DNA of 64,000 nucleotides from Burkholderia seminalis DSM 23518 (GTDB lineage Bacteria; Pseudomonadota; Gammaproteobacteria; Burkholderiales; Burkholderiaceae): the NCBI RefSeq assembly GCF_902832885.1, contig NZ_CADFDK010000007.1, forward strand, positions 302,178-366,177. The letters are read 5' to 3'. Of the stretch, positions 33,913 to 60,063 are shown one piece after another. Below the pieces are notes generated by a model that saw nothing but the letters and a program-made list of their open reading frames with translations, searched no databases and had not been told where the DNA came from. A program made the translations under genes and the position numbers. Numbering within the stretch: the stretch's first letter is position 1; every line of letters begins with the position of its first letter.

Positions 33913-34761
33913 TCAGAACAGCGCGTAGCGCGCGGCGATCATCAGCATGCGCGCCTTCGGCTTGCGCAGCGGCGCGCGCGGCGCGGCAAAGCCGCGTGCG
34001 ATCGCGGCTTCGAGAATGCAGCGATACGCGCCCGACATGATGCGCGGCGCCTTCACCTGTGCACGCGGGCAGGTATCCATCACCGCGTCGGCCTGGCGGA
34101 AGTGCTCGAGCGCGCGCTCGACGAGCGTCGCGCACACGCGCGGCAGCGCCGGATCGCGCACGATCGTCGCCGGGTCGGTGATCGCGATGCCTTCGCGCGC
34201 GAGCAGTTCGCGCGGCAGGTAGCAGCGGTTGATCGCCGCGTCGTCGTCGATGTCGCGCAGGATGTTCGTCAGTTGCAGCGCGCGGCCGAGGTGGTGCGAC
34301 AGCTTGATCCCTTCGGCTTCCGGCATCCCGAAAATCCTCACCGACAGCCGGCCGGCGGCGCTCGCCACGCGATCGCAGAAGAGGTCGAGCGTCGGCTCGT
34401 CGGGCGCGCAGATATCCTCGACCGCATCCATCGCCATCCCGTCGATCATCGCGTGGAAATCGGCGCGCTGCAGGTTGAACGCGCGGATCTCGCGGTCGAG
34501 CGCGACCAGGTGGCGCGGCGGGCGGCCCGCGAAGCACGCGTCGATGTCCGCGCGCCAGCGGTCGAGGCCCGCGTTGCGCTCGGCGCGCGGCAGGTCGCTG
34601 TCGGCGATGTCGTCGACCGCGCGGCAGAACGCGTAGACCTGGAACATCGCGTCGCGCTGCACGGCCGGCAGGATGCGCATCGCCAGATAGAAGGAACTGC
34701 CCGATGTGACGGCAGCGGCGTCGGTTTCTTGTTCGTCCACGACGGAATGGGAAACGGCCAA
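33913..34761 (-). CDS. hpnD: Presqualene diphosphate synthase HpnD
   Basis: A 282-residue trans-isoprenyl diphosphate synthase of the squalene/phytoene family. The two Asp-rich motifs are FCRAVDDIADSD and LTNILRDIDDD, binding the farnesyl diphosphates through magnesium. It makes presqualene diphosphate from two FPP. I chose the TTG at 34761 (LAVSHSVVDEQE) because GGAG lies 6 bases upstream; a GTG at 34785 would add 8 residues. It opens the hopanoid operon. HpnC, the next enzyme of the HpnCDE route, is not adjacent. Confidence 0.9.
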   Translation of the reverse strand: MAVSHSVVDEQETDAAAVTSGSSFYLAMRILPAVQRDAMFQVYAFCRAVDDIADSDLPRAERNAGLDRWRADIDACFAGRPPRHLVALDREIRAFNLQRADFHAMIDGMAMDAVEDICAPDEPTLDLFCDRVASAAGRLSVRIFGMPEAEGIKLSHHLGRALQLTNILRDIDDDAAINRCYLPRELLAREGIAITDPATIVRDPALPRVCATLVERALEHFRQADAVMDTCPRAQVKAPRIMSGAYRCILEAAIARGFAAPRAPLRKPKARMLMIAARYALF

Positions 34762-35020
34762 GACGAGCTCCACGGAGACACCCACGCGGGGCGATTGAAG
34801 AAGCCATGCCCGGCTGGGATGGTCAGGGTGTCAAATGCGTGCGAGATATGCGAACGATCGACACAGACAGGCACAAATTACCGGCCGGAAGCCGGAATTG
34901 GGCGAAAGTATAGCAATCTTTGAAGTTCGATGGCGGACACGCGCCAAGCCCGGCGGGGCGCCGGAGGCCGCCGGCAGCCGGGCGCGGCCGGCCCCGGCGG
35001 GACCGGGCGCCGGCGGCGGG

Positions 35021-43342: not shown

Positions 43343-43523
43343 TCAGGCCTGGAGGGTAGAGCCCGGTATTGTAGCCAGTCTGTGCCGGGGGCCCCGAAGG
43401 TGGTCAGGGGCGGGCGCGAGTGGGCTGGTGTATCGCCGCGGCGATCGGACAGGTGGCGCCTCGTCGATGCGAGCCGCGAGAGGGGTGTGCTATCCGGAGA
43501 ACTCGAGTCAAAGAATGGATGTG

Positions 43524-43537
43524 TTTATGCGCATAAA
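43524..43537. other. parS: parS centromere site 1 (TTTATGCGCATAAA)
   Basis: Perfect 14-bp palindrome, extended to GTTTATGC|GCATAAAG. This is the ParB-binding consensus I recall for chromosome 2 of Burkholderia cenocepacia. Confidence 0.9.
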
Positions 43538-43634
43538 GTCGGGCAGCGTGCAATCGCGGGATGAGGCGCGGGATCTGCGAGCCAATGCATCGTGGCTCCC
43601 TTTGAGGCGGCGGGGAATGGCGTGGGCCGCTTGG

Positions 43635-43648
43635 TTTATGCGCATAAA
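43635..43648. other. parS: parS centromere site 2
   Basis: Perfect TTTATGCGCATAAA palindrome, 111 bp from site 1. Confidence 0.9.
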
Positions 43649-43820
43649 TTCCGGTCGCCGGAGGAGGTGCGTCGCGATTCACGGCGTGGTTGCATGTCGA
43701 TACCCCACGGCCTCGAGGGGCCGTTGTATCGATATGCGGCTTGGCCACGGCATCATCGCGCATCGGATTCAGGCGGAGACTGCGCGTGGCCCGTCGTTCA
43801 TCGTCATCGAGCGTCACCGG

Positions 43821-43834
43821 TTTATGCGCATAAA
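43821..43834. other. parS: parS centromere site 3
   Basis: Perfect TTTATGCGCATAAA, followed by C. Confidence 0.9.
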
Positions 43835-43992
43835 CGCGTCGCGCCTGAACAGGCCGTCGCATCGATGCCCACGCGCTCAAACCACACGCACCATTAAAGC
43901 CACATGCTTGGTCAGGGTACGCCGCTCACGACCCTCGCTCGCGAACGACAGCCCATTTGGCCTCGATGTTGATCCGCTCGATCCCCGCCGAG

Positions 43993-44006
43993 TTTATGCG
44001 CACAAA
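43993..44006. other. parS: parS centromere site 4, one mismatch
   Basis: TTTATGCGCACAAA: a single T-to-C change in the right arm breaks perfect symmetry. It may be a weaker ParB site. Confidence 0.8.
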
Positions 44007-44187
44007 CTCCCCGACTCTCTGGCAAGCGTCCCCCCATCCATCGAAAGGGCAGTGCTTCGGGACATCGTAGAGCGCGCCCACTCAACTCGCCGACATCGAT
44101 CGCCGCGACACATCCATCGAGTAGTCCATCGACATCGCCAGGCCTCCGCCACACGATCCGATCGAGCCATCGATCTCCTCCGTCCCG

Positions 44188-44201
44188 TTTATGCGCATAA
44201 A
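44188..44201. other. parS: parS centromere site 5
   Basis: Perfect palindrome with GTTTATGCGCATAAAC extension (full 16-bp symmetry), 101 bp before the parA start. Confidence 0.92.
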
Positions 44202-44228
44202 CCGATAGCCCGAATGGCTAATGCGTAG

Positions 44229-46141: not shown

Positions 46142-47509
46142 TCAGGCGGCCCGCGACTGGTTCAGCGTGAACGACAGCAGGTCGCCGTCCGTCGGCTCAC
46201 CCCAGGTCTTCTGGGCCAGCCAGTCGAAAAAGGCCGTCTCGGCCAGCTTGGAATCGAGGCCGCGCTTGCGCCAGTCGTCGCGCAGATGCGAGCCCATCGT
46301 CGGCAGCGCCTCCGCTTCGAACGATTCGCGCGCCACTTCGCGCTCCGCGTCGCCCTGCTCTTCGTACAACACCTTCGCTTCCTTGCGGCGGAACGCCGAG
46401 AACTCGCTCAGCAGGCGCGCCTTCAGGTCGTCAGGCTGGGCCGCCGCGACCTTCGCGGACGGCGTGCCGGCCGGCAGCGCATCGACCGACTCGACCGGCG
46501 GCGCATACCCCTTCTTCAGCGCATCCTTGAACAACGCCGGCGCGCTGCGCACCGGCGGCAGCGTCGTGCTGCGCATCCGCTGTTCGGTCATCTGCAGTGC
46601 GGCGCGAATCCGGTTCTCCTCGCTGTCCGCATAGAGCGTCTGCGCTTCCTTCAGCGGGATCCCGAGCTTCACCATCCGGTCGACCAGCGTGCTGTCGAAC
46701 ACGTTCGGGTGTTCGTCGAGCGCGAGCATCGGCTGCTTGCGCTCGGTCACGCGGAACTGGATCTCGGCCACCCGGCGTCCTTCGCGGTGCTCGATCAGCT
46801 CGACGAAGATGTTGGTGACCGCGTTGACTTCCGCGATCGCGGGGCGCAGGTAGTCGCGCTTGAAGTACTTGTACTCGCGCTTCGCCTCGTCGCCGGCTTC
46901 CGTATCGGGCGTACCCGACAGGATCGGCCGCCACCATTCCCACGGCTCGCGCATCGTCAGGTGGCTCGGGTTCGTCAGGTAGCGCACGCAGATCTCGTAC
47001 AGTGCAAGACCCGCGCTGCTGCGCAGCTGGCTCTGGAACTGCAGGCTCAGGCGCGCGTACTGGACCGGGTCGAGCAGTTTCTTCTTGATCTTCGGCGCGA
47101 ACGAGAATTCGACCCACACGCGGCGGGTCGTCGGATCCTCGAGAATTTCGGCGTCGGCGATCAGCGTCGAGATCCCCCACTTGCGGCCAGGCTTCTGGCT
47201 CGACGTCCCCGTGCTCCATTCGACCTGCACCGACACCATGCGGCGCAGGTGTTCCTTCACCAGTGCGGTGTCGTTCGAATCGAAAGCGGAGTTGGCAACG
47301 ATGTCCGACAGCAGCGCGCGGTAGGTATCGCCCGAGTCGTCGGCCTGCTGCGCGACGGCCAGCAGGACATTGAACAGCTTGCGAGTGAGGAGCGTGATCT
47401 TGCCGCTTTTCGGCTGAATGGCAATCGCCTCGACGGCCTTGCGCAATTCGGCGGAACTGGCACTCACCACATCCACATCGGTTTTCTTGGCGCGCTTCGT
47501 CGTGGCCAT
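46142..47509 (-). CDS. repA: Replication initiator protein (Rep_3/RepB-like), RepA
   Basis: A 455-residue plasmid-type replication initiator. Residues about 35-270 form the paired winged-helix Rep_3 domain (ITLLTRKLFNVLLAVAQQ, SLQFQSQLRSSAGLALYEICVRYL, LRPAIAEVNAVTNIFVELIEHREGRRVAEIQFRV). The C-terminal ~180 residues are a helical extension not found in small plasmid Reps, seen in secondary-chromosome initiators of this genus. It is transcribed away from the iteron array that starts 14 bp upstream of its start codon, and is convergent to parB. It should bind the iterons and open the origin of this replicon. Confidence 0.92.
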   Translation of the reverse strand: MATTKRAKKTDVDVVSASSAELRKAVEAIAIQPKSGKITLLTRKLFNVLLAVAQQADDSGDTYRALLSDIVANSAFDSNDTALVKEHLRRMVSVQVEWSTGTSSQKPGRKWGISTLIADAEILEDPTTRRVWVEFSFAPKIKKKLLDPVQYARLSLQFQSQLRSSAGLALYEICVRYLTNPSHLTMREPWEWWRPILSGTPDTEAGDEAKREYKYFKRDYLRPAIAEVNAVTNIFVELIEHREGRRVAEIQFRVTERKQPMLALDEHPNVFDSTLVDRMVKLGIPLKEAQTLYADSEENRIRAALQMTEQRMRSTTLPPVRSAPALFKDALKKGYAPPVESVDALPAGTPSAKVAAAQPDDLKARLLSEFSAFRRKEAKVLYEEQGDAEREVARESFEAEALPTMGSHLRDDWRKRGLDSKLAETAFFDWLAQKTWGEPTDGDLLSFTLNQSRAA

Positions 47510-47628: not shown

Positions 47629-48936
47629 TCCCGAAAACCCTCACCGGTCCGTCATTGCGGCGTTCCGGACTCTTCCAGACGTGCCGCGGGATGCGCGGAT
47701 TCACAGAATTTCACCTGTGCTCGACACGTGCGGAATTCGCTCCCGTATCGGCTCACCTTTCGATTTGTCGTAATTTTGCGACTTCACGGCCGGGGGTTCG
47801 GCACAGGGTTGCGATTGCCTCGCACCCTGCGTTCCGGATCGCCTCGCAGCGGCCTGTATGCATGTACAGGCGCGGCTCGCGGGAAGATCGGAATCGGGTC
47901 CGGCGTTCGACACGGCGCCGTCGAAACCGGCTCGTGCGGCCCGATCGGGCCTGATTTGCAGGTCCGGGCGCGCATTGTACAGCGGCCCAATCGGATCAGG
48001 TCCCGAAAATACTCACCTTGAGCACAGCTTGTTCTTTTGCCTGGATGCCGACGAAGGCCCGACTCACGCGGGATTGACCGGTACCGCCTCCCGAAAACGC
48101 TCACATTGTCGAAAAAAGGCTGTGCGTCGACAGGCACGGGAATGGCTCCCGAAAAACCTCACCGTAACCACCCCGGTATCAAAAACCTCAATGCGTTCCG
48201 ATACTTATGCACAGAAGGCATTTGGCTGTGCGCGGTAGATGTCCCCCGAAAAGCCTCACCTTTCGGCGGGAATCCTTCATACGACGACCCTGGGTCCGCC
48301 CCCGAAAAATCTCACCTGTGCCAAAAAGTGGCACAGCAAAAACGAGATTTCTTCCAGTCCTGGCGGGCTTTTCGGCGAATTCGGCCGCTCAAGGGTCCCG
48401 AAAAGCCTCACCTTTGCCCATTTTTCGGGCAAATTCCATTCCCGAAAAGTCTCACCTGTGAGCGAGCGCACAGCCTGTGATCCATGCCCCGAAAAAGCTC
48501 ACCTCAGCGGGATCAGGGCAGGAAAACCCGGATTTCCCTCCCGAAAAACCTCACCTTTAGGGCATCACGGGCCCCTGAACGCACTTTTGCTGTGCAAAAT
48601 GGCGCTCGGTTCCCGGAAATCCTCACAGCAAAATCTCGCGGAGTCCCGTGAAACCTCACCTTTCGCCCAAACTGCCTAAAAGATGGGCAGAATCGGGGCG
48701 CAAAGAAGGTCCCGCAAATTCTCACCTGTGTCTGCACAGGCAGAAAACTGTGCAGTCAGGCAGCGCGCGGGTTCCGCGGCTGTGCGGCCCCGAAAACGCT
48801 CACCTTTGGGAAATCTCGTGTTTCACTGTGATCCCGAATCCGCTCACGACCTTTCCTGCAACGGCTCACGCTGCTCCCTGAACCCCATCACGTCGGCTCC
48901 CGCAGACGATCACCTTGGCTCCCGTAAAACTTCACC
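47629..48936 (+). repeat. Iteron array, consensus TCCCGAAAANNCTCACC, 18 direct copies
   Basis: Eleven copies keep CCCGAAAA-NN-CTCAC exactly; 17-bp units start at 47629, 48001, 48089, 48147, 48244, 48300, 48396, 48440, 48487, 48539 and 48788. Seven diverged copies start at 47741, 48611, 48644, 48710, 48832, 48898 and 48920. All are in the same orientation; spacing is irregular (22 bp to over 250 bp), unlike compact plasmid iterons. Most are followed by TTT or TGTG. Expected to bind the RepA encoded on the left. Confidence 0.93.
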
Positions 48937-50513: not shown

Positions 50514-50555
50514 CCCGAAGATCGGCAGCGCCTGCACAGGTGAGAGGATCCGGGA

Positions 50556-50585
50556 CGCTTGAGGTGAGGTTTTTCGGGAGCTGTG
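50556..50585 (-). repeat. Outlying inverted iteron, perfect core
   Basis: GGTGAGGTTTTTCGGGA (50563-50579) is the exact complement of the array consensus, within the longer element CGCTTGAGGTGAG...TTCGGGAGCTGTG shared with a copy at 55.4 kb. It lies between two convergent genes. A diverged partner GGTGAGAGGATCCGGGA starts at 50539. Confidence 0.85.
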
Positions 50586-50650
50586 AAACGGTGAGGCTGC
50601 GTCACGCAAGGCTGCTCACGGATCGTGTCGCGTGAGCAGCCGTTTCCGGA

Positions 50651-51670
50651 TCAGTGAGTTTCGTCGCTGTCGGTTGCGTCACCGTTGTGCGGGGCCAGGC
50701 CATCGCGCCAGTTTTTCCACGCGCGATGCAGGCGGTTCGACGAGACCGGCCGCATGAAGCCCAGCCATTTACCCACGCGCTCGGGTGGCACATCGTGTTC
50801 GAACAGTTCGGCCGCATAGGTATTGCGCAGCGTTTGCGGGCTCGCACGCGCGGTGCGCGATGACGTGAGCCCGGCCGATTCGACGATCGCGTCGATCGCG
50901 CGCAGCATCGTCGCCTTGTGCATCGGCCGCCCGGCGTGCGATGCCGGGAACACGAGCTCTCCGGGGATGTCCTGGCGCTTGCGTTCGGTGAGCCATGCCT
51001 CGAGCAGCGCGATCGCAAACGACGCCAGATGGGTCTCGCGCGCGTAATCCGGATGCGCCGCCTCGATCCGCAGCGACGTGCCGCTCGTATTGATGCAACT
51101 AATCGTGAGTGCCCGCGCTTCGCCAGTCTTGATGCCGGCGCCGAGAAACGCGGCGACGAGCGCCCGGTCGCGCCGTTCTTTCCAGTACGCGGAACCCGAT
51201 ACGCCGATCGGCGAAAACAGATAGGCGAGCAACGTCGCGCGCTCGGCCGGGGTGAGGAAGCCGGTCGGCTCGTTGTCGCGTGCCTTGCGCCAGTTCGCTT
51301 CGCCATCCTGAGCAATGAAGCGGGCCGGGTTCGTCGATGCGTATTCGGTGCGCCGGATGTGGTCGAGCACACGCTCGATCAGGCGCAGATAGCGCATGCG
51401 CTGCGTTTTCCTGATCGGCAGCTCGCCGACGAAGTTGGCGATGGTTGCCGTATCGACCGTTGCCAGATTCTTTTGATGTGCACGCATCCACGTGAGAAAG
51501 GCGCCCCATTGCGCACGATAGACGTCGGCCGACGAGCGACGATAGTCCTGCATCGCAAGCCATGCGTCGAACGCGGCTTCGGGCGAGACGATCCAGTCGG
51601 ATGCGCCGCGGTCGAACAGATCCGGTTCTTCCGGGCGTGTGGCGGTGCCGGGCGAGGTGGGAAGGGACAT
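50651..51670 (-). CDS. Tyrosine-recombinase-fold protein lacking catalytic residues
   Basis: A 339-residue protein with the integrase layout: an N-terminal SAM-like core-binding domain (DYRRSSADVYRAQWGAFLTWM...NFVGELP) and a C-terminal domain resembling XerC/XerD. Aligned by eye, the catalytic set is degraded. The first Arg (GLRxxE) reads GIKTGE, HxLR reads QTLR, LGH reads LGF, and no Tyr lies where the nucleophile should be (SSNRLHRAW). Only the second Arg persists. It is full length and open, so it is probably a non-catalytic DNA-binding relative retained near the origin, not a decaying integrase. Confidence 0.8.
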   Translation of the reverse strand: MSLPTSPGTATRPEEPDLFDRGASDWIVSPEAAFDAWLAMQDYRRSSADVYRAQWGAFLTWMRAHQKNLATVDTATIANFVGELPIRKTQRMRYLRLIERVLDHIRRTEYASTNPARFIAQDGEANWRKARDNEPTGFLTPAERATLLAYLFSPIGVSGSAYWKERRDRALVAAFLGAGIKTGEARALTISCINTSGTSLRIEAAHPDYARETHLASFAIALLEAWLTERKRQDIPGELVFPASHAGRPMHKATMLRAIDAIVESAGLTSSRTARASPQTLRNTYAAELFEHDVPPERVGKWLGFMRPVSSNRLHRAWKNWRDGLAPHNGDATDSDETH

Positions 51671-51772
51671 GGTATTTATTCCGTTAGTTGCGTATATGGT
51701 AGCCCTTTCCGCAACGTCTCGGGCAGCAGGAGGCTGGACCGGCCGCCGTGCGCAACGGCCGGGGCTCGGCCA

Positions 51773-52150
51773 TCAGTCGCCCCACGCCTTGGACGGACGA
51801 TGAGCACGCTCGCGAGGCGCCTTGTCGTGCGACGCGGCCGCGGCTTCATACGCGAGGACCGCGAACGAAAAGACGGCGGGCAGCGCATTCGAGCGCCCGA
51901 AGTCGATGGGGTCGTCCGTTTCGGGAAACGTCATGTCCGACGGTCGTTCGAACAGTTGACGCATGCCGGCTTCGTGCCGGCTGGCAAAGCCGAGGTCGGC
52001 GAGCGCCTCGGCTTCGATCGCGTGCAGCAGGCGCCACGTGAGCGGCACGCGCTGGCGGATGTAGCGCCCGGCGATATGTCGGACGATCAGTTCGAGATCG
52101 TGCGCGGCAGCCTTGAAGCTGAGCGCGGCCAAATCTTGTTCTTCTGTCAT
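51773..52150 (-). CDS. Hypothetical protein, 125 aa
   Basis: A soluble acidic protein, mainly helical, starting MTEEQDLAALSFKAAAHDLELIVRHIAGRY and ending AAAASHDKAPRERAHRPSKAWGD. GGAGCCTGCA before the ATG at 52150 gives a fair ribosome site. I recognise no family. It lies 102 bp upstream of the recombinase-like gene on the same strand, so the two may be co-transcribed; a role near the origin is possible but unsupported. Confidence 0.65.
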   Translation of the reverse strand: MTEEQDLAALSFKAAAHDLELIVRHIAGRYIRQRVPLTWRLLHAIEAEALADLGFASRHEAGMRQLFERPSDMTFPETDDPIDFGRSNALPAVFSFAVLAYEAAAASHDKAPRERAHRPSKAWGD

Positions 52151-52289
52151 TGCAGGCTCCTGTCGACCGGGGCGGGCGCCTCGGTGCGCCGGCTCCGGCC
52201 CGTGCATGGCGGAATGTCCGTATACTGTACAAACATACAGTGTTTTCCGCAACTGGCCTGCATGGCCTGTTGGCCAGCTATCCGTGCCG

Positions 52290-52901
52290 TCAGCGATGGA
52301 TCACGATCAGCAGTGCCCGCGCTTCGGCCTTGCCGGGGTTGCGGATCGCGTGCGGCTCGTCGGCCGGGTAGCGTGCGGTGTCGCCCACTTTCAGGCGCCG
52401 GCTGGCCGCGGCGGCTTCGATTTCCATCGCGCCCTGCAGCACGGTGAGGTGCTCGCGCGTGCCGGGTTCGTGTGCGTTCGATACCAATGCACCGCCGCCC
52501 GGCAGCGTCAGTTCGTACCACTCGAACTTGCCGGCGAGGTCGATCGGGCCCCATACGCGCAGCTGGTACCGGCCGTCGTGGCCGGCGAGCGTCGGAATGT
52601 CGTGCGGGCCGTCCACACGGATCGTCTCGGGCGCCTTCGGCTGCGAGAACAATTCGTCGAGCGTGATGCCGAGCGCATTCGTCAGCCGCCACGCGACGGC
52701 GATCGTCGGGTTGGCCTTGTCGCGTTCGATCTCGGAGAGCATCGATTTCGATACGCCGGCCGCGCGCGACAGGTCGTCGAGCGTCAGCTTGCGCTCGTTG
52801 CGCAGCCGCTGGATCTGTTCGCCGACACGCGGCGGTGTCGCGGCCGGCGGCTGCGGTGCGGCACCGGCAGGCGTGCGCCGCGATCCGGGGGAACTTGCCA
52901 T
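52290..52901 (-). CDS. XRE-family regulator with C-terminal cupin domain
   Basis: A 203-residue regulator. The helix-turn-helix is at residues ~27-85 (IQRLRNERKLTLDDLSRAAGVSKSMLSEIERDKANPTIAVAWRLTNALG), and a cupin sensor follows (HEPGTREHLTVLQGAMEIEA, ADEPHAIRNPGKAEA). It is divergent from kbl-tdh, and an inverted repeat lies between. This is the usual setting of a pathway-specific regulator, here probably of threonine degradation. The ligand is unknown. Confidence 0.88.
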   Translation of the reverse strand: MASSPGSRRTPAGAAPQPPAATPPRVGEQIQRLRNERKLTLDDLSRAAGVSKSMLSEIERDKANPTIAVAWRLTNALGITLDELFSQPKAPETIRVDGPHDIPTLAGHDGRYQLRVWGPIDLAGKFEWYELTLPGGGALVSNAHEPGTREHLTVLQGAMEIEAAAASRRLKVGDTARYPADEPHAIRNPGKAEARALLIVIHR

Positions 52902-52927
52902 TTGGATTCCGTTCGCTTAGAGTTGTT

Positions 52928-52957
52928 CGATATTTCGAATTCTAGTTCGGAATATCG
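52928..52957. promoter_or_regulatory. Inverted repeat in the xre/kbl divergent promoter
   Basis: CGATATTTCGAA and TTCGGAATATCG are 12-bp arms with a single mismatch around the 6-bp TTCTAG. It lies 27 bp before the regulator start, the likely binding site of the XRE-cupin protein. Confidence 0.6.
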
Positions 52958-53062
52958 GATAAATGCGGTCAACCGAACGACCGACTATAACAGTAGCAGG
53001 CCGTTGCGCCGCCGCCACGAGCGGTGCGCTGCGGAATGCGAATCCCTGTCAGGAGCTTTGCG

Positions 53063-54262
<1,200 letters not shown>

Positions 54263-54275
54263 CGGAGGCGCGACC

Positions 54276-55304
<1,029 letters not shown>

Positions 55305-55318
55305 GTCGAGTATCGAGA

Positions 55319-55356
55319 CGGGGCAGGGCGGCGCGTTTGCCGCCCGCCCCGCTTTC
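55319..55356 (+). terminator. Terminator after tdh
   Basis: A long GC-rich hairpin: CGGGGC-A-GGGCGGC paired with GCCGCCC-GCCCCG, loop GCGTTT, then CTTTC. One bulged A; the T tail is short. Confidence 0.75.
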
Positions 55357-55396
55357 GTTGACATGCACATGGTCGGCATCGACGTGCGTGATTCAA

Positions 55397-55426
55397 CGCT
55401 TGAGGTGAGACTATTCGGGAGCTGTG
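55397..55426 (-). repeat. Outlying inverted iteron-like element
   Basis: GGTGAGACTATTCGGGA (55404-55420), one mismatch from the array consensus. It lies within CGCTTGAGGTGAG...TTCGGGAGCTGTG, which is identical in flanks to the element at 50.6 kb. It is in the gap between convergent tdh and a hypothetical gene, about 6.9 kb from the array centre. The rest of the 382-bp gap (55305-55686) holds the tdh terminator and nothing else recognisable. Confidence 0.8.
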
Positions 55427-55686
55427 TTTGCGGGCGCGAATCGCACATCGGTGACTTGCGATTGCCCGTTCGCTTCACCTGTCAGCCTCTGCTTCGCTTC
55501 TTCCGTTTACGCCGTTCGGCGCGTGCCCTCCCTTTCCACGTGCTTCCCTGCTTCGCTCGCCGAGCGCTCGTTCGCGATGCGCCGCCTGCGAGGCCGAATC
55601 GAATCGCGCCATCAACCGTGAGCCTGCGAACGTCGTTGCGACTCACTCATACGCGTCGCGCACGGCGTTCGACGGTGCGCGGATCG

Positions 55687-56103
55687 CTACCTGCTTTCTT
55701 CACCCTTCAACCATCGCGGTTCGAGCTGAAGATTCAGCACGACGAGCCAGCGTTTCGGGCATTGCGGCGCAACGTCAACGGGATCGCCGTGTGCACCGGG
55801 AACGGTGACGAACCCGTGCTGCGCCGCGTACCGATACGCGCGCAGGGCATCCGCCTGCAGCCAGAAGCTGACGAGCGCGCACGTCACGAAACGGAATAGC
55901 AGCACCGTTGCGGCGTCCGGCGCGAAACCGGCCGCGACCAGCAGGCGGTCGAACGCGAACGTCAGCACATGCGCAACCGCGATCGTGACGATCGTCAGCT
56001 TCATCACGCCGCGCAGCCGCAGCGCAGCACGCACGCGCGCCTGGCGGACGTCGAGCGGTGCGCGATCGTTGCCGCCGTCGCGTTTCGGCACGTCGTGCTT
56101 CAT
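55687..56103 (-). CDS. Hypothetical membrane protein, 138 aa
   Basis: A basic N-terminus is followed by two hydrophobic segments (VMKLTIVTIAVAHVLTFAFDRLLVAAG and ATVLLFRFVTCALVSFWL), then a soluble tail ending NLQLEPRWLKGEESR. The family is not recognised. The start at 56103 is the longest plausible; MKLTIV 99 bp inside is an alternative. It stands alone and is convergent to tdh. Confidence 0.5.
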   Translation of the reverse strand: MKHDVPKRDGGNDRAPLDVRQARVRAALRLRGVMKLTIVTIAVAHVLTFAFDRLLVAAGFAPDAATVLLFRFVTCALVSFWLQADALRAYRYAAQHGFVTVPGAHGDPVDVAPQCPKRWLVVLNLQLEPRWLKGEESR

Positions 56104-56300
56104 GACGCGGCACCTGCTTGCCGCACGACGACGCGGCCGACGAGCCGCTTTGCATAAGCCGCATGAGCGCGCGCGGGGCGCGCGGATTCCGGTCGCTGCA
56201 TGATGTCCTTGTGCCCAGACAGGGTGACCGAAGTGTAGTGAGCGCCCCGTATCGCCTTCAAGAAAAAATGTCGTAAACGCGCGCCGTCAGGCCGCGCTTC

Positions 56301-56325
56301 AGCCCTTTCGCCGACAGGGCTTTTT
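56301..56325 (+). terminator. Rho-independent terminator-like hairpin without an upstream gene
   Basis: AGCCCT / AGGGCT stem with a 9-base loop and five T on the plus strand. No plus-strand gene lies between tdh (which has its own terminator) and this point, so it may end a small RNA or be a leader element of the TetR gene. Confidence 0.45.
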
Positions 56326-56345
56326 CACACGGGGGTTGACGATGG

Positions 56346-56359
56346 AGAACGATCGTTCT
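56346..56359. promoter_or_regulatory. TetR operator AGAACGATCGTTCT
   Basis: Perfect 14-bp palindrome 11 bp upstream of the tetR-type start. It lies directly after a -35-like TTGACG (56336-56341), where bound repressor would block polymerase. Typical autoregulation site. Confidence 0.7.
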
Positions 56360-56370
56360 ACCGTAAACGC

Positions 56371-56976
56371 ATGAACCCATCTCACGACTCCTCCGGCGAA
56401 CCGGGTGTTCGCGACCGGCTGCTCGACGCGGCCGAAGCGCTGATCTATTCGGGCGGCATCCACGCAACGGGCATCGATGCGATCGTCAAGCGATCCGGCG
56501 CGGCACGCAAGAGCGTTTATTCGCATTTCGAATCGAAAGAGGCGCTGGTGGTCGCCGCCCTCGAACGCCGCGACGAGCGCTGGATGCGCTGGTTCGTCGA
56601 TGCCACGCAGGCACGCGGCAAGGCGCCGCGCGCGCAGCTGCTCGGCATGTTCGACGTGCTGCGCGACTGGTTCGGGCAGCCCGACTTTCACGGCTGCGCG
56701 TTCCTGAATACGTCGGGCGAGATCCCCGACGCCGACGATCCCGTGCGTGTCGTCGCGCGCGAGCACAAGGCACGGCTGCTGGCATTCGTGCGCGCGTGCT
56801 TCGATGCGTACGCCGACGAAGCCGGCATCGAGCGCCGCGGGCTCGCCCGCCTCGCGCGCCAGTGGCTCGTGCTGATCGATGGCGCGATCGGCGTGGCGCT
56901 CGTCAGCGGCGATGCAAACGTCGCGCGCGATGCGCGCGCGACGGCTGAACTGCTGCTCGATACCGTGTCGCGGTAG
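56371..56976 (+). CDS. TetR-family transcriptional regulator
   Basis: A 201-residue TetR regulator. The helix-turn-helix is in residues ~14-60 (VRDRLLDAAEALIYSGGIHATGIDAIVKRSGAARKSVYSHFESKEAL). The C-terminal ligand domain (GCAFLNTSGEIPD, LARQWLVLIDGAIGVALVSGD) fits the TetR_C group of YxaF/LmrA-like repressors. It is followed 63 bp later by a SnoaL-like gene on the same strand that it probably controls together with itself. Confidence 0.9.
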   Translation: MNPSHDSSGEPGVRDRLLDAAEALIYSGGIHATGIDAIVKRSGAARKSVYSHFESKEALVVAALERRDERWMRWFVDATQARGKAPRAQLLGMFDVLRDWFGQPDFHGCAFLNTSGEIPDADDPVRVVAREHKARLLAFVRACFDAYADEAGIERRGLARLARQWLVLIDGAIGVALVSGDANVARDARATAELLLDTVSR

Positions 56977-57039
56977 CCGACGCAGCGAATTCGAACCGGC
57001 TGCGTTCGTTCGCGGCCAGAACCTGAACAGGAGCAACCC

Positions 57040-57519
57040 ATGTCCGCTTCCCCCGAAGTCCGCCCGCCCGTTCCGCCCTTCACGCTCGAAACGGCACGCC
57101 AGAAGGTGCGCGCCGCCGAGGACGCGTGGAATACGCGCGACCCGCAACGCGTGTCGCTCGCCTATACGCCGCAAAGCCGATGGCGCAATCGCGCGGAGTT
57201 CGTGACGGGCCGCGACGAGATCGTCCGGCTGTTGCAGCGGAAGTGGACGCGCGAACTCGACTACCGGCTGATCAAGGAGCTGTGGGCGTTCGACGGCAAT
57301 CGCATCGCGGTGCGTTTTGCGTACGAATGGCGCGACGATGCGGGCAACTGGTTCCGCTCGTACGGCAACGAGAACTGGGAGTTCGACGAGAACGGCCTGA
57401 TGGCGCATCGTCATGCGAGCATCAATGATCTGCCGATTCGCGAGGCGGATCGGCTTTATCACTGGCCGCTCGGCCGTCGCCCGGACGATCATCCGGGGCT
57501 GTCCGACCTCGGGCTGTGA
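57040..57519 (+). CDS. SnoaL-like protein, DUF1348 (NTF2 superfamily)
   Basis: A 159-residue NTF2-fold protein of the DUF1348 family: [67 protein letters not shown]. The function of the family is unknown; the fold often binds small hydrophobic molecules. The start follows AGGAGCAACCC. It is likely co-transcribed with the TetR gene. Confidence 0.85.
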
Positions 57520-57567
57520 GATGCGTGTCGACTCGGCGGAACGCCGCACGCCTCGCCGAGGTTCAAT

Positions 57568-57614
57568 GGTGAGGAAATTCGGGAGTCGATGCGCTGAGGT
57601 GAGATTATTCGGGA
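57568..57614 (-). repeat. Two outlying inverted iteron-like sites in tandem
   Basis: GGTGAGGAAATTCGGGA (57568-57584) and GGTGAGATTATTCGGGA (57598-57614), 30 bp apart. The second has the CGCTGAGGTGAG prefix seen at 50.6 and 55.4 kb. They lie in the gap between the convergent SnoaL-like and tartrate dehydrogenase genes. The rest of the 389-bp gap (57520-57908) shows no gene or other clear element. Confidence 0.8.
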
Positions 57615-57908
57615 GGAGGTGAAATGTCGCGTCGGACTGTGTACTTCGCGCAGATCGACGCGACATGGCGCGGGTGACGCAGGCACGTCGATGCGCATCG
57701 GTGTGTTCCGCCGCGTGATGCATCTCACCGATCTCACCGGGTCAGGCATCGCCGATCGGTGTGCGCGCGCGTGACGTGCCACTCACCGATCGGATCGACT
57801 TCGTTGCGCACGCGTCCGGCGAGGTTGCACGAGTGCGCGAACGCATCGCGTGTTGCTCACCGCGCACGGATGCACGAAGTGCTGCCCGGCCCGCGCCGGG
57901 CATGACCG

Positions 57909-58994
57909 TCAGCCCGCGATCCGCGCGGCGATCGCCTCACCCACGGCCTGCGTTCCTGCGTCACCGCCGAGATCGCGCGTACGCGGCCCGGTGCGCAGCA
58001 CATCCTCGATCGCGGCGACGATCGCGTCGTGTGCTTCGCGTTCGCGGCCCGCGCCGTTACCGAGAAAATCGAGCATCATCGCGGCCGACCAGATCATCGC
58101 GACCGGGTTCGCGATGTATTGCCCCGTGATGTCGGGCGCGGAACCGTGCACGGGTTCGAACAGCGACGGGAACGTGCGGTCCGGGTTCAGGTTCGCCGAC
58201 GGCGCGATGCCGATCGTGCCCGTGCAGGCCGGCCCGAGATCCGACAGGATGTCGCCGAACAGGTTCGATGCGACGACGACGTCGAAGCGGTCCGGCTGCA
58301 GCACGAAGCGCGCGCACAGGATGTCGATGTGCTGCTTGTCGACGGCGATCTCCGGATAGCGTTCGGCCATGTCGGCCGCGCGCGCATCCCACCATGGCAT
58401 GCTGATCGCGATGCCGTTGCTCTTCGTCGCGACGGTGAGGCGCTTCGCGCGCCGCTGCGCGAGCTCGAATGCGAATTTCAGCACGCGTTCGGTGCCGTGC
58501 CGCGTGAAGATTGATTGCTGCATCACGACTTCGCGATCGGTGCCTTCGAACATCGTGCCGCCGACCGACGAATATTCGCCCTCGGTGTTCTCGCGCACGA
58601 TCATGAAGTCGATGTCGCCCGGGCGGCGGCCGGCGAGCGGCGACGGCACGCCGTCGAACAGGCGCGCGGGCCGCAGGTTGATGTACTGGTCGAATTCGCG
58701 GCGGAATTTCAGCAGCGAGCCCCACAGCGAGATGTGATCGGGCACCGTTGCGGGCCAGCCGACCGCGCCGAACAGGATCGCGTCCATGCCCGACAGCTGC
58801 GCCTTCCAGTCGTCCGGCATCATCTTGCCGTGCTGCGCGTAGTAGTCGCAGCTCGCCCAGTCGATCTCGACGAAGTCGAAGCGGATGCCGAAGCGCGCGG
58901 TCACGGCCGCGAGCGCACGCAGGCCCTCGGGCATCACTTCGCGGCCGATGCCGTCGCCGGGAATCACGGCAATTCTGTAGGTCCTGTCGGTCAT
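57909..58994 (-). CDS. Tartrate / D-malate dehydrogenase (decarboxylating, TtuC/DmlA type)
   Basis: A 361-residue enzyme of the isocitrate/isopropylmalate dehydrogenase family. Motifs: IAVIPGDGIGREVMPEG, MIVRENTEGEYSSVGG, KSNGI and NLFGDILSDLGPACTGTIGIAPSANL, with C-terminal EPVHGSAPDITGQ. Such proteins oxidise tartrate or D-malate with NAD and a divalent metal. Divergent from a LysR gene resembling DmlR, as in the E. coli dmlA-dmlR pair, which favours D-malate; the substrate cannot be settled from sequence. Confidence 0.88.
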   Translation of the reverse strand: MTDRTYRIAVIPGDGIGREVMPEGLRALAAVTARFGIRFDFVEIDWASCDYYAQHGKMMPDDWKAQLSGMDAILFGAVGWPATVPDHISLWGSLLKFRREFDQYINLRPARLFDGVPSPLAGRRPGDIDFMIVRENTEGEYSSVGGTMFEGTDREVVMQQSIFTRHGTERVLKFAFELAQRRAKRLTVATKSNGIAISMPWWDARAADMAERYPEIAVDKQHIDILCARFVLQPDRFDVVVASNLFGDILSDLGPACTGTIGIAPSANLNPDRTFPSLFEPVHGSAPDITGQYIANPVAMIWSAAMMLDFLGNGAGREREAHDAIVAAIEDVLRTGPRTRDLGGDAGTQAVGEAIAARIAG

Positions 58995-59111
58995 GCAAAT
59001 CTCCTTGGCTGGTCGGCCGGCTGCCGAGGGAGGCGGCGGCCCGTCACGTCATTCTATTTATTTCCATTCGGATTAGAATCGTGTGAAAGGTTAATCGACT
59101 TTCTACGAATC

Positions 59112-60035
59112 GTGAACAAATCACCGAATCTCGACGACCTGCGCGTGTTCAGCCTGGTGGTCCGCCTGACGAGCTTCAGCGCGGCCGCCGAGCAGCTCGC
59201 GGTGTCGCCCGCGTACGTCAGCAAGCGCATCGCGCTGCTCGAGGCGCAGCTCGGTACGCGCCTGCTGCATCGCTCGACGCGCCGCGTGACGGTTACGGAA
59301 GCCGGCGAACGCGTGTTCGCGCGTGCCGAGAAGATTCTGGACGACGTCGATCATCTCGTCGAGGACGTGTCGACCACGCGCACGGTGCCGCGCGGCACGC
59401 TGCGCATCTCGAGCAGCTTCGGTTTCGGCCGGCATGTCGTCGCGCCGGCGCTGCTCGACTTCAGCGCGCGCTACCCGCAACTGAACGTGCGGCTCGATCT
59501 GTTCGACCGGCTCGTCGATGTCGCGGGCGAAGGCTACGACCTCGACGTGCGCATCGGCGACGAGATCGCCGATCACCTGATCGCGCGCCGCCTCGCCGCG
59601 AACCATCGCGTGCTGTGCGCGTCGCCCGACTATCTCGCACGACGCGGCACGCCGCGCTCGCTCGCGGATCTCGCGTCGCACGACTGTCTGGCGATCAAGG
59701 AGCGCGATCATCCGTTGGGTGTATGGCGACTGAACGTGCGCGGCGAGACGGTCACGGTGAAGGTCGGCGGCGCGCTGTCGACGAACCACGGCGAGGTGGC
59801 CGTGCAATGGGCGCTTGCCGGGCGCGGGATCGTGTTGCGCTCGATCTGGGAGGCCGCGCCGCTGATCGAACGCGGTGAACTGTGTCGCGTGCTGCCGGAC
59901 GCGATTCAGCCCGCGAACATCTGGGCCGTGTATCCGGAACGCGTGGCGGCGTCGGCGAAGGTGCGCGTGTGCGTGGACTTTCTGGCGGAGACGCTGGCCG
60001 GCATGAATGCCGCGGCGGGCGGCGATACGACCTGA
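59112..60035 (+). CDS. LysR-family regulator, DmlR-like
   Basis: A 307-residue LysR regulator. The helix-turn-helix VVRLTSFSAAAEQLAVSPAYVSKRIALLEAQLG is near residue 16, followed by RLLHRSTRRVTVTEAGE and an effector domain beginning PRGTLRISSSFGFGRHVVAP, close to DmlR/TtuA regulators. GTG start at 59112. Divergent from the tartrate/D-malate dehydrogenase gene with a 117-bp AT-richer spacer, so it likely activates that gene when its substrate is present. Confidence 0.9.
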   Translation: MNKSPNLDDLRVFSLVVRLTSFSAAAEQLAVSPAYVSKRIALLEAQLGTRLLHRSTRRVTVTEAGERVFARAEKILDDVDHLVEDVSTTRTVPRGTLRISSSFGFGRHVVAPALLDFSARYPQLNVRLDLFDRLVDVAGEGYDLDVRIGDEIADHLIARRLAANHRVLCASPDYLARRGTPRSLADLASHDCLAIKERDHPLGVWRLNVRGETVTVKVGGALSTNHGEVAVQWALAGRGIVLRSIWEAAPLIERGELCRVLPDAIQPANIWAVYPERVAASAKVRVCVDFLAETLAGMNAAAGGDTT

Positions 60036-60046
60036 AATAGGCTAAA

Positions 60047-60063
60047 GGTGAGCTTTTACGGGG
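60047..60063 (-). repeat. Outlying inverted iteron-like site
   Basis: GGTGAGCTTTTACGGGG: complement CCCCGTAAAAGCTCACC, close to the diverged array copy at 48920. It lies 12 bp after the LysR stop, between convergent genes, 11.5 kb from the array. Confidence 0.65.

What the first reader, a model, noticed from the sequence alone, without database searches (positions are those of the whole stretch)
50539..60063. Inverted iteron-like sites scattered up to 11.5 kb from the origin, all in convergent gene gaps
Five 17-bp copies of the RepA iteron complement (GGTGAGNNTTTTCGGGA type) start at 50563, 55404, 57568, 57598 and 60047. All have the opposite orientation to the origin array. All lie between convergent genes (KfrA-like/recombinase-like, tdh/hypothetical, SnoaL-like/tartrate dehydrogenase, LysR/argC), so they avoid promoters. 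Three share a longer flank (CGCTTGAGGTGAG...TTCGGGAG), so they form a subfamily, not chance hits. Orientation bias and placement suggest selection for a role in replication control: titration of RepA, handcuffing with the array, or a timing element comparable in concept to outlying RctB sites of Vibrio chromosome 2. I know of no description for this genus.
Basis: partly seen in the sequence, partly recalled or inferred. Interest (0 to 1): 0.88.

Follow-up and report, generated by a model that had tools for sequence, protein, structure and literature searches.

The report
Initiator-binding sites scattered far from ori2
The DNA word recognised by the protein that starts copying of the second chromosome in Burkholderia is repeated at conserved places far from that chromosome's start point, and inside the start point of the third chromosome in many species, which suggests a built-in circuit that keeps these chromosomes from being copied too often or out of turn.

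Summary
The five sites are real: 21 matches in the window, 0.04 expected. The word is the published c2 iteron of B. cenocepacia. In 29 near-complete genus genomes an exact pattern gives 747 hits against 9 for the reversed pattern; 151 of 151 hits within 35 kb on the kfrA side face against the array. Sites stay nearly invariant inside drifting gaps.

It missed a site inside hpnD, kept by rare codons, and a second cluster 140 kb away; Du et al. 2016 mention such a cluster and scattered copies in one legend. 'Convergent gaps only' fails at the next pair.

New here as far as I could search: a pair of chr2-type iterons inside ori3, beside chr3's own iterons, in 14 of 20 loci, with no chr3-type iterons in the window or 40 chr2 loci. 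The window's own genome has only a remnant of that pair.

Best explanation: RepA2-binding negative-control sites (titration, handcuffing), comparable to V. cholerae outlying RctB sites. RepA2 binding is untested. Boldest open reading: RepA2 also times chr3.

The parts
34326..34342 (-). outlying chr2-type iteron inside the hpnD coding sequence
   Evidence: perfect match; rare codons kept in 21 of 21 sequences; control homologues differ
33913..34785 (-). hpnD-like gene (squalene/phytoene synthase family) that hosts the site
46142..47509 (-). repA2, Rep3-family initiator of chromosome 2
   Evidence: Rep3_N and Rep3_C domains; 64 of 64 genus genomes have a match
47629..48936 (-). ori2 iteron array, 17 copies at 10 bits or more, all on the repA2 strand
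50539..50555 (+). weak outlying iteron, 24-bp partner of the next site
   Evidence: 13.4 bits; stronger partner in many relatives
50563..50579 (+). outlying iteron, kfrA/integrase gap
   Evidence: 35.8 bits; 21 of 21 arms; 77 of 78 loci that reach it, four genera
55404..55420 (+). outlying iteron, tdh gap
   Evidence: 28.1 bits; 19 of 21 arms
57568..57584 (+). outlying iteron, SnoaL-like gap, first of a pair
   Evidence: 20.3 bits
57598..57614 (+). outlying iteron, SnoaL-like gap, second of a pair
   Evidence: 26.4 bits; a site in this gap in 21 of 21 arms
60047..60063 (+). outlying iteron, 11 bases after the lysR stop
   Evidence: 31.2 bits; 21 of 21 arms, also in 6 arms with no argC homologue beside it

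Best explanation
The sites are outlying binding sites of the chr2 initiator RepA2 and form a negative-control network for ori2. After ori2 fires, the kfrA-side sites (to about 19 kb in near relatives), the hpnD site (about 14 kb) and then the second cluster (97-275 kb) are duplicated within minutes at the published fork speed of about 33 kb per minute. The new copies take up free RepA2 and can pair through RepA2 with the ori2 array (handcuffing), so ori2 cannot fire again until RepA2 rises. Shown: the same word as the array iteron, position, orientation, and conservation above flanks and above codon preference. Inferred: RepA2 binding, titration or handcuffing, and any effect on timing.
For: Same consensus as the published c2 iteron. 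747 hits against 9 reversed in 29 genomes; 151 of 151 kfrA-side, 27 of 27 other-side and 294 of 294 array hits obey one strand rule; 144 of 144 non-array matrix hits in 20 arms face against the array. Site columns 0.92-0.97 pairwise identity against 0.47-0.81 in flanks. hpnD codons. Second cluster in 27 of 29 genomes. Remnant replicons of 61-72 kb keep array iterons but have no outlying hit of 17 bits or more in the parts scanned. V. cholerae precedent: outlying chrII RctB sites inhibit chrII replication (PMC3937223, passages).
Against: No binding or copy-number data. Titration alone does not require a fixed orientation or fixed places. In V. cholerae, mutating three prominent outlying RctB sites had minimal effect (PMC11711613, passages). 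Strand rule has exceptions: 6 of 165 kfrA-side hits in the named loci, and G203 and G138 in other genera. G015 and G028 show no second cluster by pattern. Loss of sites in the reduced genomes could be general decay.
Confidence: 0.62

Rival explanations
1. Architectural or orientation-dependent role: RepA2 on outlying sites loops or bridges the ori2 domain, or acts as a polar element met by the outgoing fork, rather than counting initiator molecules.
For: Fixed strand relative to the array, fixed places across species and in-phase short pairs; none of these is required by titration. Du et al. report slightly fewer ori-proximal left-arm sequences on c2, unexplained.
Against: The second cluster carries both orientations in 21 of 21 loci, and other genera have mixed orientation (G203, G138). 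The motif is G- and T-rich, so leading-strand skew could favour one strand.
Confidence: 0.22
2. Transcriptional role: RepA2 or another protein uses the sites to control or terminate neighbouring genes.
For: Several sites lie close behind a stop codon, the lysR site 15-65 bases after the gene end; the 16-19 kb pair and the trio lie upstream of genes.
Against: Neighbours are unrelated; the lysR site stays where argC is absent; one site is inside a coding sequence. RctB appears to regulate only its own transcription (PMC11711613, passages).
Confidence: 0.08
3. The sites bind a protein other than RepA2 that shares the word, such as the KfrA-like protein.
For: No binding data; kfrA lies beside the array.
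Against: The word is identical with the initiator iteron array, and the array persists with repA2 in reduced replicons. Whether kfrA persists there was not checked.
Confidence: 0.05
4. Relics: decaying copies left by origin duplication or rearrangement, without function.
For: A few copies are degenerate and the window's genome has only a remnant at ori3.
Against: Conservation above flanks in four gaps, codon evidence, and 747 against 9 hits.
Confidence: 0.03

Closest known systems
Vibrio cholerae outlying RctB sites on chrII (Baek and Chattoraj 2014, PMC3937223; passages read)
   Same: Copies of a secondary-chromosome initiator's iteron lie outside the origin on the same chromosome, about 40 kb away, and will double early; there they bind RctB and inhibit replication.
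   Different: [quoted passage not shown] Here an ordered set kept across the genus, with a strand rule, a 23-bp-spaced array, a copy inside a coding gene, and copies in ori3. Function here is not tested.
crtS of V. cholerae (review PMC6090056, passages; PMC11711613, passages)
   Same: A site on another replicon that links replication of two replicons; compare the chr2-type pair in ori3.
   Different: crtS is on the main chromosome and is a new kind of site. Here I noticed no recurrent chr1 site (not formally tested); the pair is iteron-like and on the third replicon.
c2 iterons of Burkholderia cenocepacia J2315 (Du et al. 2016, PMC4948915; abstract, sections and passages read, supplements not readable)
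   Same: Same consensus; the S1 Table legend mentions others throughout the genome and a second c2 cluster 140 kb anticlockwise.
   Different: No analysis of conservation, orientation, placement, the hpnD site or ori3 seen in the parts read.
E. coli datA (as described in PMC3937223, passages)
   Same: A locus off the origin with several initiator sites, replicated early, that restrains initiation.
   Different: datA acts on DnaA-ATP by hydrolysis; RepA2 belongs to the Rep3 plasmid family and no such chemistry is known to me (recalled).

Membership tests
Iterons of the c2 initiator RepA2 | sequence matches the ori2 iteron consensus | tested here: met
Iterons of the c2 initiator RepA2 | bound by RepA2 | not testable with these tools
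   no binding data found in the papers seen
Outlying initiator-titration sites (RctB chrII type) | initiator-type sites away from the origin, on the same replicon and near it | tested here: met
   665 of 747 hits on chr2; within 35 kb or in a cluster at 97-275 kb
Outlying initiator-titration sites (RctB chrII type) | extra copies reduce replication from the origin | not testable with these tools
   experiment needed
crtS-type inter-replicon trigger | conserved initiator-type site on another replicon | tested here: met
   chr2-type pair in ori3 in 14 of 20 loci, one copy in 1, none in 5 including the own genome
crtS-type inter-replicon trigger | the site lies on the main chromosome | tested here: inconclusive
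   chr1 hits are few and no recurrent place was noticed, but they were not aligned between genomes
crtS-type inter-replicon trigger | replication of the site triggers the other origin | not testable with these tools
   experiment needed

The most novel reading that the evidence does not exclude
RepA2 is a relay between replicons. It binds a pair of its own iterons built into ori3, between a lone inverted chr3 iteron and the chr3 array, and holds ori3 off or primes it. When chr2 fires and its outlying sites double, RepA2 is drawn away from ori3, so chr3 initiates after chr2. This would give a molecular basis for the c1-c2-c3 order reported for B. cenocepacia, with one-way control: chr2-type sites in ori3, no chr3-type sites in the chr2 loci tested.
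Probability: 0.3. Interest if true: 0.92.

Novelty: new variant of a known kind. Interest (0 to 1): 0.8.

Why it matters
Du et al. (2016) argued that for a large plasmid-derived chromosome to be stable, either its replication control must have been augmented in some way or it must come from plasmids that already replicate early (passage). A 2026 survey treats timers beyond V. cholerae crtS and A. tumefaciens methylation control as still to be identified (PMC13342612, passage). Here is a specific, conserved, removable set of DNA sites that could be that augmentation, and a pair in ori3 that makes the order of chr2 and chr3 replication testable.

Tried and rejected
Chance: rejected (reversed-pattern controls). 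'Convergent gaps only' as a rule: rejected. hpnD site explained by protein constraint alone: rejected, because 28 homologues from other families use other codons there, mostly with other residues as well. The ori3 pair being ordinary chr3 iterons: rejected, since the 8 pair sites cross-scored in 4 loci score 4.9 bits or less on the chr3 matrix. A crtS-like chr1 iteron: none noticed, not formally excluded. Joint change of motif and RepA in distant relatives: not testable here, since the listed homologues are either at least 78% or at most 41% identical (list cut). A paper search on a mini-pC3 origin listed nothing relevant. The 197-kb replicon of G028 with a 33-bp pair was looked at and left open.

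Dropped or partial rows: the first tally covered 21 of 29 genomes; the other 8 were added. The listing was cut within G018; G018 to G024 were re-read. One of 31 loci (L072) was left out of the matrix. For ori3, 20 loci were fetched (own and 19 others); G002, G008, G011 and G014 also have a repA3-like hit and were not fetched. For hpnD the 20 relatives were chosen because the pattern matched there (27 of 29 match), and one search used the 30 best loci of 105 genomes with a match. G090 and G125 were matrix-scanned over 40 of 66 and 40 of 61 kb, though pattern-scanned whole.
Full report
They are copies of the chr2 iteron: Du et al. 2016 (PMC4948915; abstract, two sections and passages read, supplements not readable) print the c2 consensus ctCCCGAAAAacCTCACCTtt, the reverse complement of this word. 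A matrix from 343 unique array iterons gives the five 20.3-35.8 bits, and the reversed window gives no hit at 10 bits.

Conservation. An exact pattern, GGTGAGNNTNTNCGGGR, was run over 29 near-complete genomes of the genus (2 to 7 contigs each) and the window's own genome. The 29 gave 747 hits; the reversed pattern gave 9 (sum of the control columns). By distance and strand: at the array 294 of 294 hits are on the repA2 strand; on the kfrA side to 35 kb 151 of 151 are on the opposite strand; on the other side at 10-30 kb 27 of 27 are on the repA2 strand, one in each of 27 genomes (none in G014 and G041). 82 of 747 are off the chr2 contig, and by hand count about 34 of the 665 chr2 hits are scattered further away. 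In 80 named loci around repA2 from Burkholderia, Paraburkholderia, Caballeronia and Trinickia the matrix finds 167 outlying hits at 15 bits or more against 1 in the reversed loci. The first kfrA-side site is present in 77 of the 78 loci that reach it, and 159 of 165 kfrA-side hits face against the array; 6 do not.

Anatomy near ori2. In the kfrA-side arms of 20 further genomes, 144 of 144 non-array hits at 15 bits or more face against the array, with no reversed-control hit. With the window counted, the same gaps are used: kfrA/integrase 21 of 21, tdh gap 19 of 21, SnoaL gap 21 of 21, after lysR 21 of 21, the last also in 6 arms where no argC homologue was found beside it. The 8 remaining genomes follow the same strand rule. 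In alignments of four gaps the site columns average 0.92-0.97 pairwise identity against 0.47-0.81 in the 50 bases on either side; the site window ranks 1st, 2nd, 3rd and 4th of 181. Beyond the window a 22-bp-spaced pair follows at 16-19 kb; in 14 of 15 genomes checked it lies between divergent ORFs (names recalled from the translations: acetoacetate-decarboxylase-like and PAP2-like), and in the 15th no right-hand ORF was seen. In 8 of 19 arms the tdh-gap site lies between tdh and tetR on the same strand. So the convergent-gap rule holds only locally: in the window's stretch 4 of 4 convergent gaps and 0 of 7 other gaps carry a site (1/330, by hand from my gene list).

A site inside a gene. The perfect copy at 34326 lies in hpnD (SQS_PSY family; the gene name is recalled). 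All 21 sequences compared keep TCG GTG AGG/AGA ATN TTC GGG there (AGG in 20, AGA in 1), although AGG is 0.3% of Arg codons in the rest of these genes. The 20 relatives were chosen because the pattern matched; it matches in 27 of 29 genomes. Of 31 further homologues read, the three on the repA2 contig near it (L067, L081, and L241 at 37 kb) keep AGG at the Arg position and GGG at the final Gly; none of 28 from other families of the order has AGG at the first or GGG at the second. Most of those 28 also have other residues there, so the comparison is of both protein and codon. DNA-level selection is the simplest reading.

The second cluster. In the window's contig, 140 kb on the hpnD side, ten iterons at near-multiples of 23 bp lie in a convergent gap, and three more in the opposite orientation lie about 3 kb further, across a gene with CoA-binding and acetyltransferase domains. 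In 21 of 21 loci read (own and 20 others) there are 7-13 array copies at 8 bits or more plus an opposite trio, with no reversed-control hit. Of six more divergent loci one has a 7-copy array and five have only a few sites on each side; these were matched by layout, not by genes. Counting G033, seen by pattern only, the cluster was found in 27 of 29 genomes, at 97-275 kb from ori2, on the kfrA-side arm in four (G017, G021, G062, G063); G015 and G028 show none by pattern. Du et al. mention such a cluster in one legend sentence.

Sites inside ori3. Scanning about 19 kb around repA3 in 20 genomes (10 kb in L126; 370,971 bases in all) gives 30 hits at 12 bits or more against 0 reversed. They are a pair of chr2-type iterons 32-34 bp apart on the repA3 strand in 14 of 20 loci, one copy in 1 (L124), and one weak hit of another form in L140. 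The pair lies 1.6-1.8 kb upstream of repA3, but 3.1 kb in L139. Five loci have no such site, among them the window's own genome, which keeps one degenerate copy. A chr3 iteron matrix (218 unique seeds, consensus AAGGTAGCCnTTTATGGGA) finds 15-19 copies per ori3 locus, none in the window and none in 40 chr2 loci. In 13 of the 14 pair loci the pair sits between a lone inverted chr3 iteron and the main chr3 array, and the 8 pair sites cross-scored in 4 loci score 4.9 bits or less on the chr3 matrix. By pattern G002, G008 and G011 also have at least one copy 1.7 kb upstream of repA3. A further single site on the opposite strand lies 18-60 kb upstream of repA3 in at least ten genomes (coordinates); the five fetched were confirmed. 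The window's contig C30 carries a copy with like flanks.

Natural experiments. Four genome-reduced relatives (1.1-1.2 Mb) keep repA2 (78-83% identical) on replicons of 61-72 kb. They hold 6-11 array iterons at 12 bits or more; outlying hits are weak (16.2 bits in G070; 13.0 and 12.4 in G116). Two contigs were matrix-scanned whole and two in part; all four genomes were pattern-scanned whole with no outlying hit. In other genera outlying sites sit at other places: kfrA-side hits face against the array in 11 of 11 (G211), 10 of 10 (G109), 7 of 8 (G103), but 2 of 4 (G138) and a minority in G203.

Mechanism. Shown: the same word as the ori2 iteron, placement, orientation, selection. Inferred: RepA2 binds. 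Most likely role: negative control by titration and handcuffing once the sites double after initiation, as proposed for RctB in V. cholerae (PMC3937223, passages). Against simple transfer of that model, a later study found minimal effect of mutating three prominent outlying RctB sites (PMC11711613, passages), and titration does not explain a fixed orientation. The ori3 pair suggests a relay from chr2 to chr3, in keeping with the c1-c2-p1/c3 order; c3 segregates more loosely (PMC4948915 abstract), which would fit an imperfect relay but also no relay. That five of 20 ori3 loci lack the pair shows it is dispensable in some species.

Print status. Paper searches listed no paper whose title or abstract describes these sites; of the listed papers I saw passages of four and the outline of one besides PMC4948915. 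Subscription papers and the supplements of PMC4948915 were not visible, so a note there on c2-type iterons at the c3 origin cannot be excluded.

Noticed in passing
window 43523-44202: Five copies of GTTTATGCGCATAAAC with at most one mismatch (two perfect), none expected; they lie beside parA/parB-like genes and look like parS2 sites (recalled).
   Followed up: partly
G211:C1, 6.68 Mb (L235, L236): repA2, the iteron array and outlying sites lie on one 6.68-Mb contig that is nearly the whole genome, perhaps a chromosome-chromid fusion or an assembly join.
   Followed up: no
G030:C2, 4.85 Mb (L139): A repA3-like gene and a chr2-type pair lie on a 4.85-Mb contig, perhaps a fusion of chr3 with another replicon.
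   Followed up: no
L217 (G028:C3, 197 kb), 9664 and 9697: A 197-kb replicon carries a chr2-type pair with the same 33-bp spacing as in ori3; its initiator was not identified.
   Followed up: partly
L223-L234 (genus g8 genomes): 1.1-1.2 Mb reduced genomes keep a 61-72 kb replicon with repA2 and array iterons, apparently a shrunken second chromosome.
   Followed up: partly
contigs other than chr2 in G002, G008, G024, G036, G039, G057 and own C10: The same 17-base word GGTGAGCGTTTCCGGGA recurs outside chr2 and chr3; it was not tested whether it is one shared place.
   Followed up: no
L218-L222: The single chr3 outlying site is followed by what looks like a terminator-like inverted repeat (by eye).
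   Followed up: no
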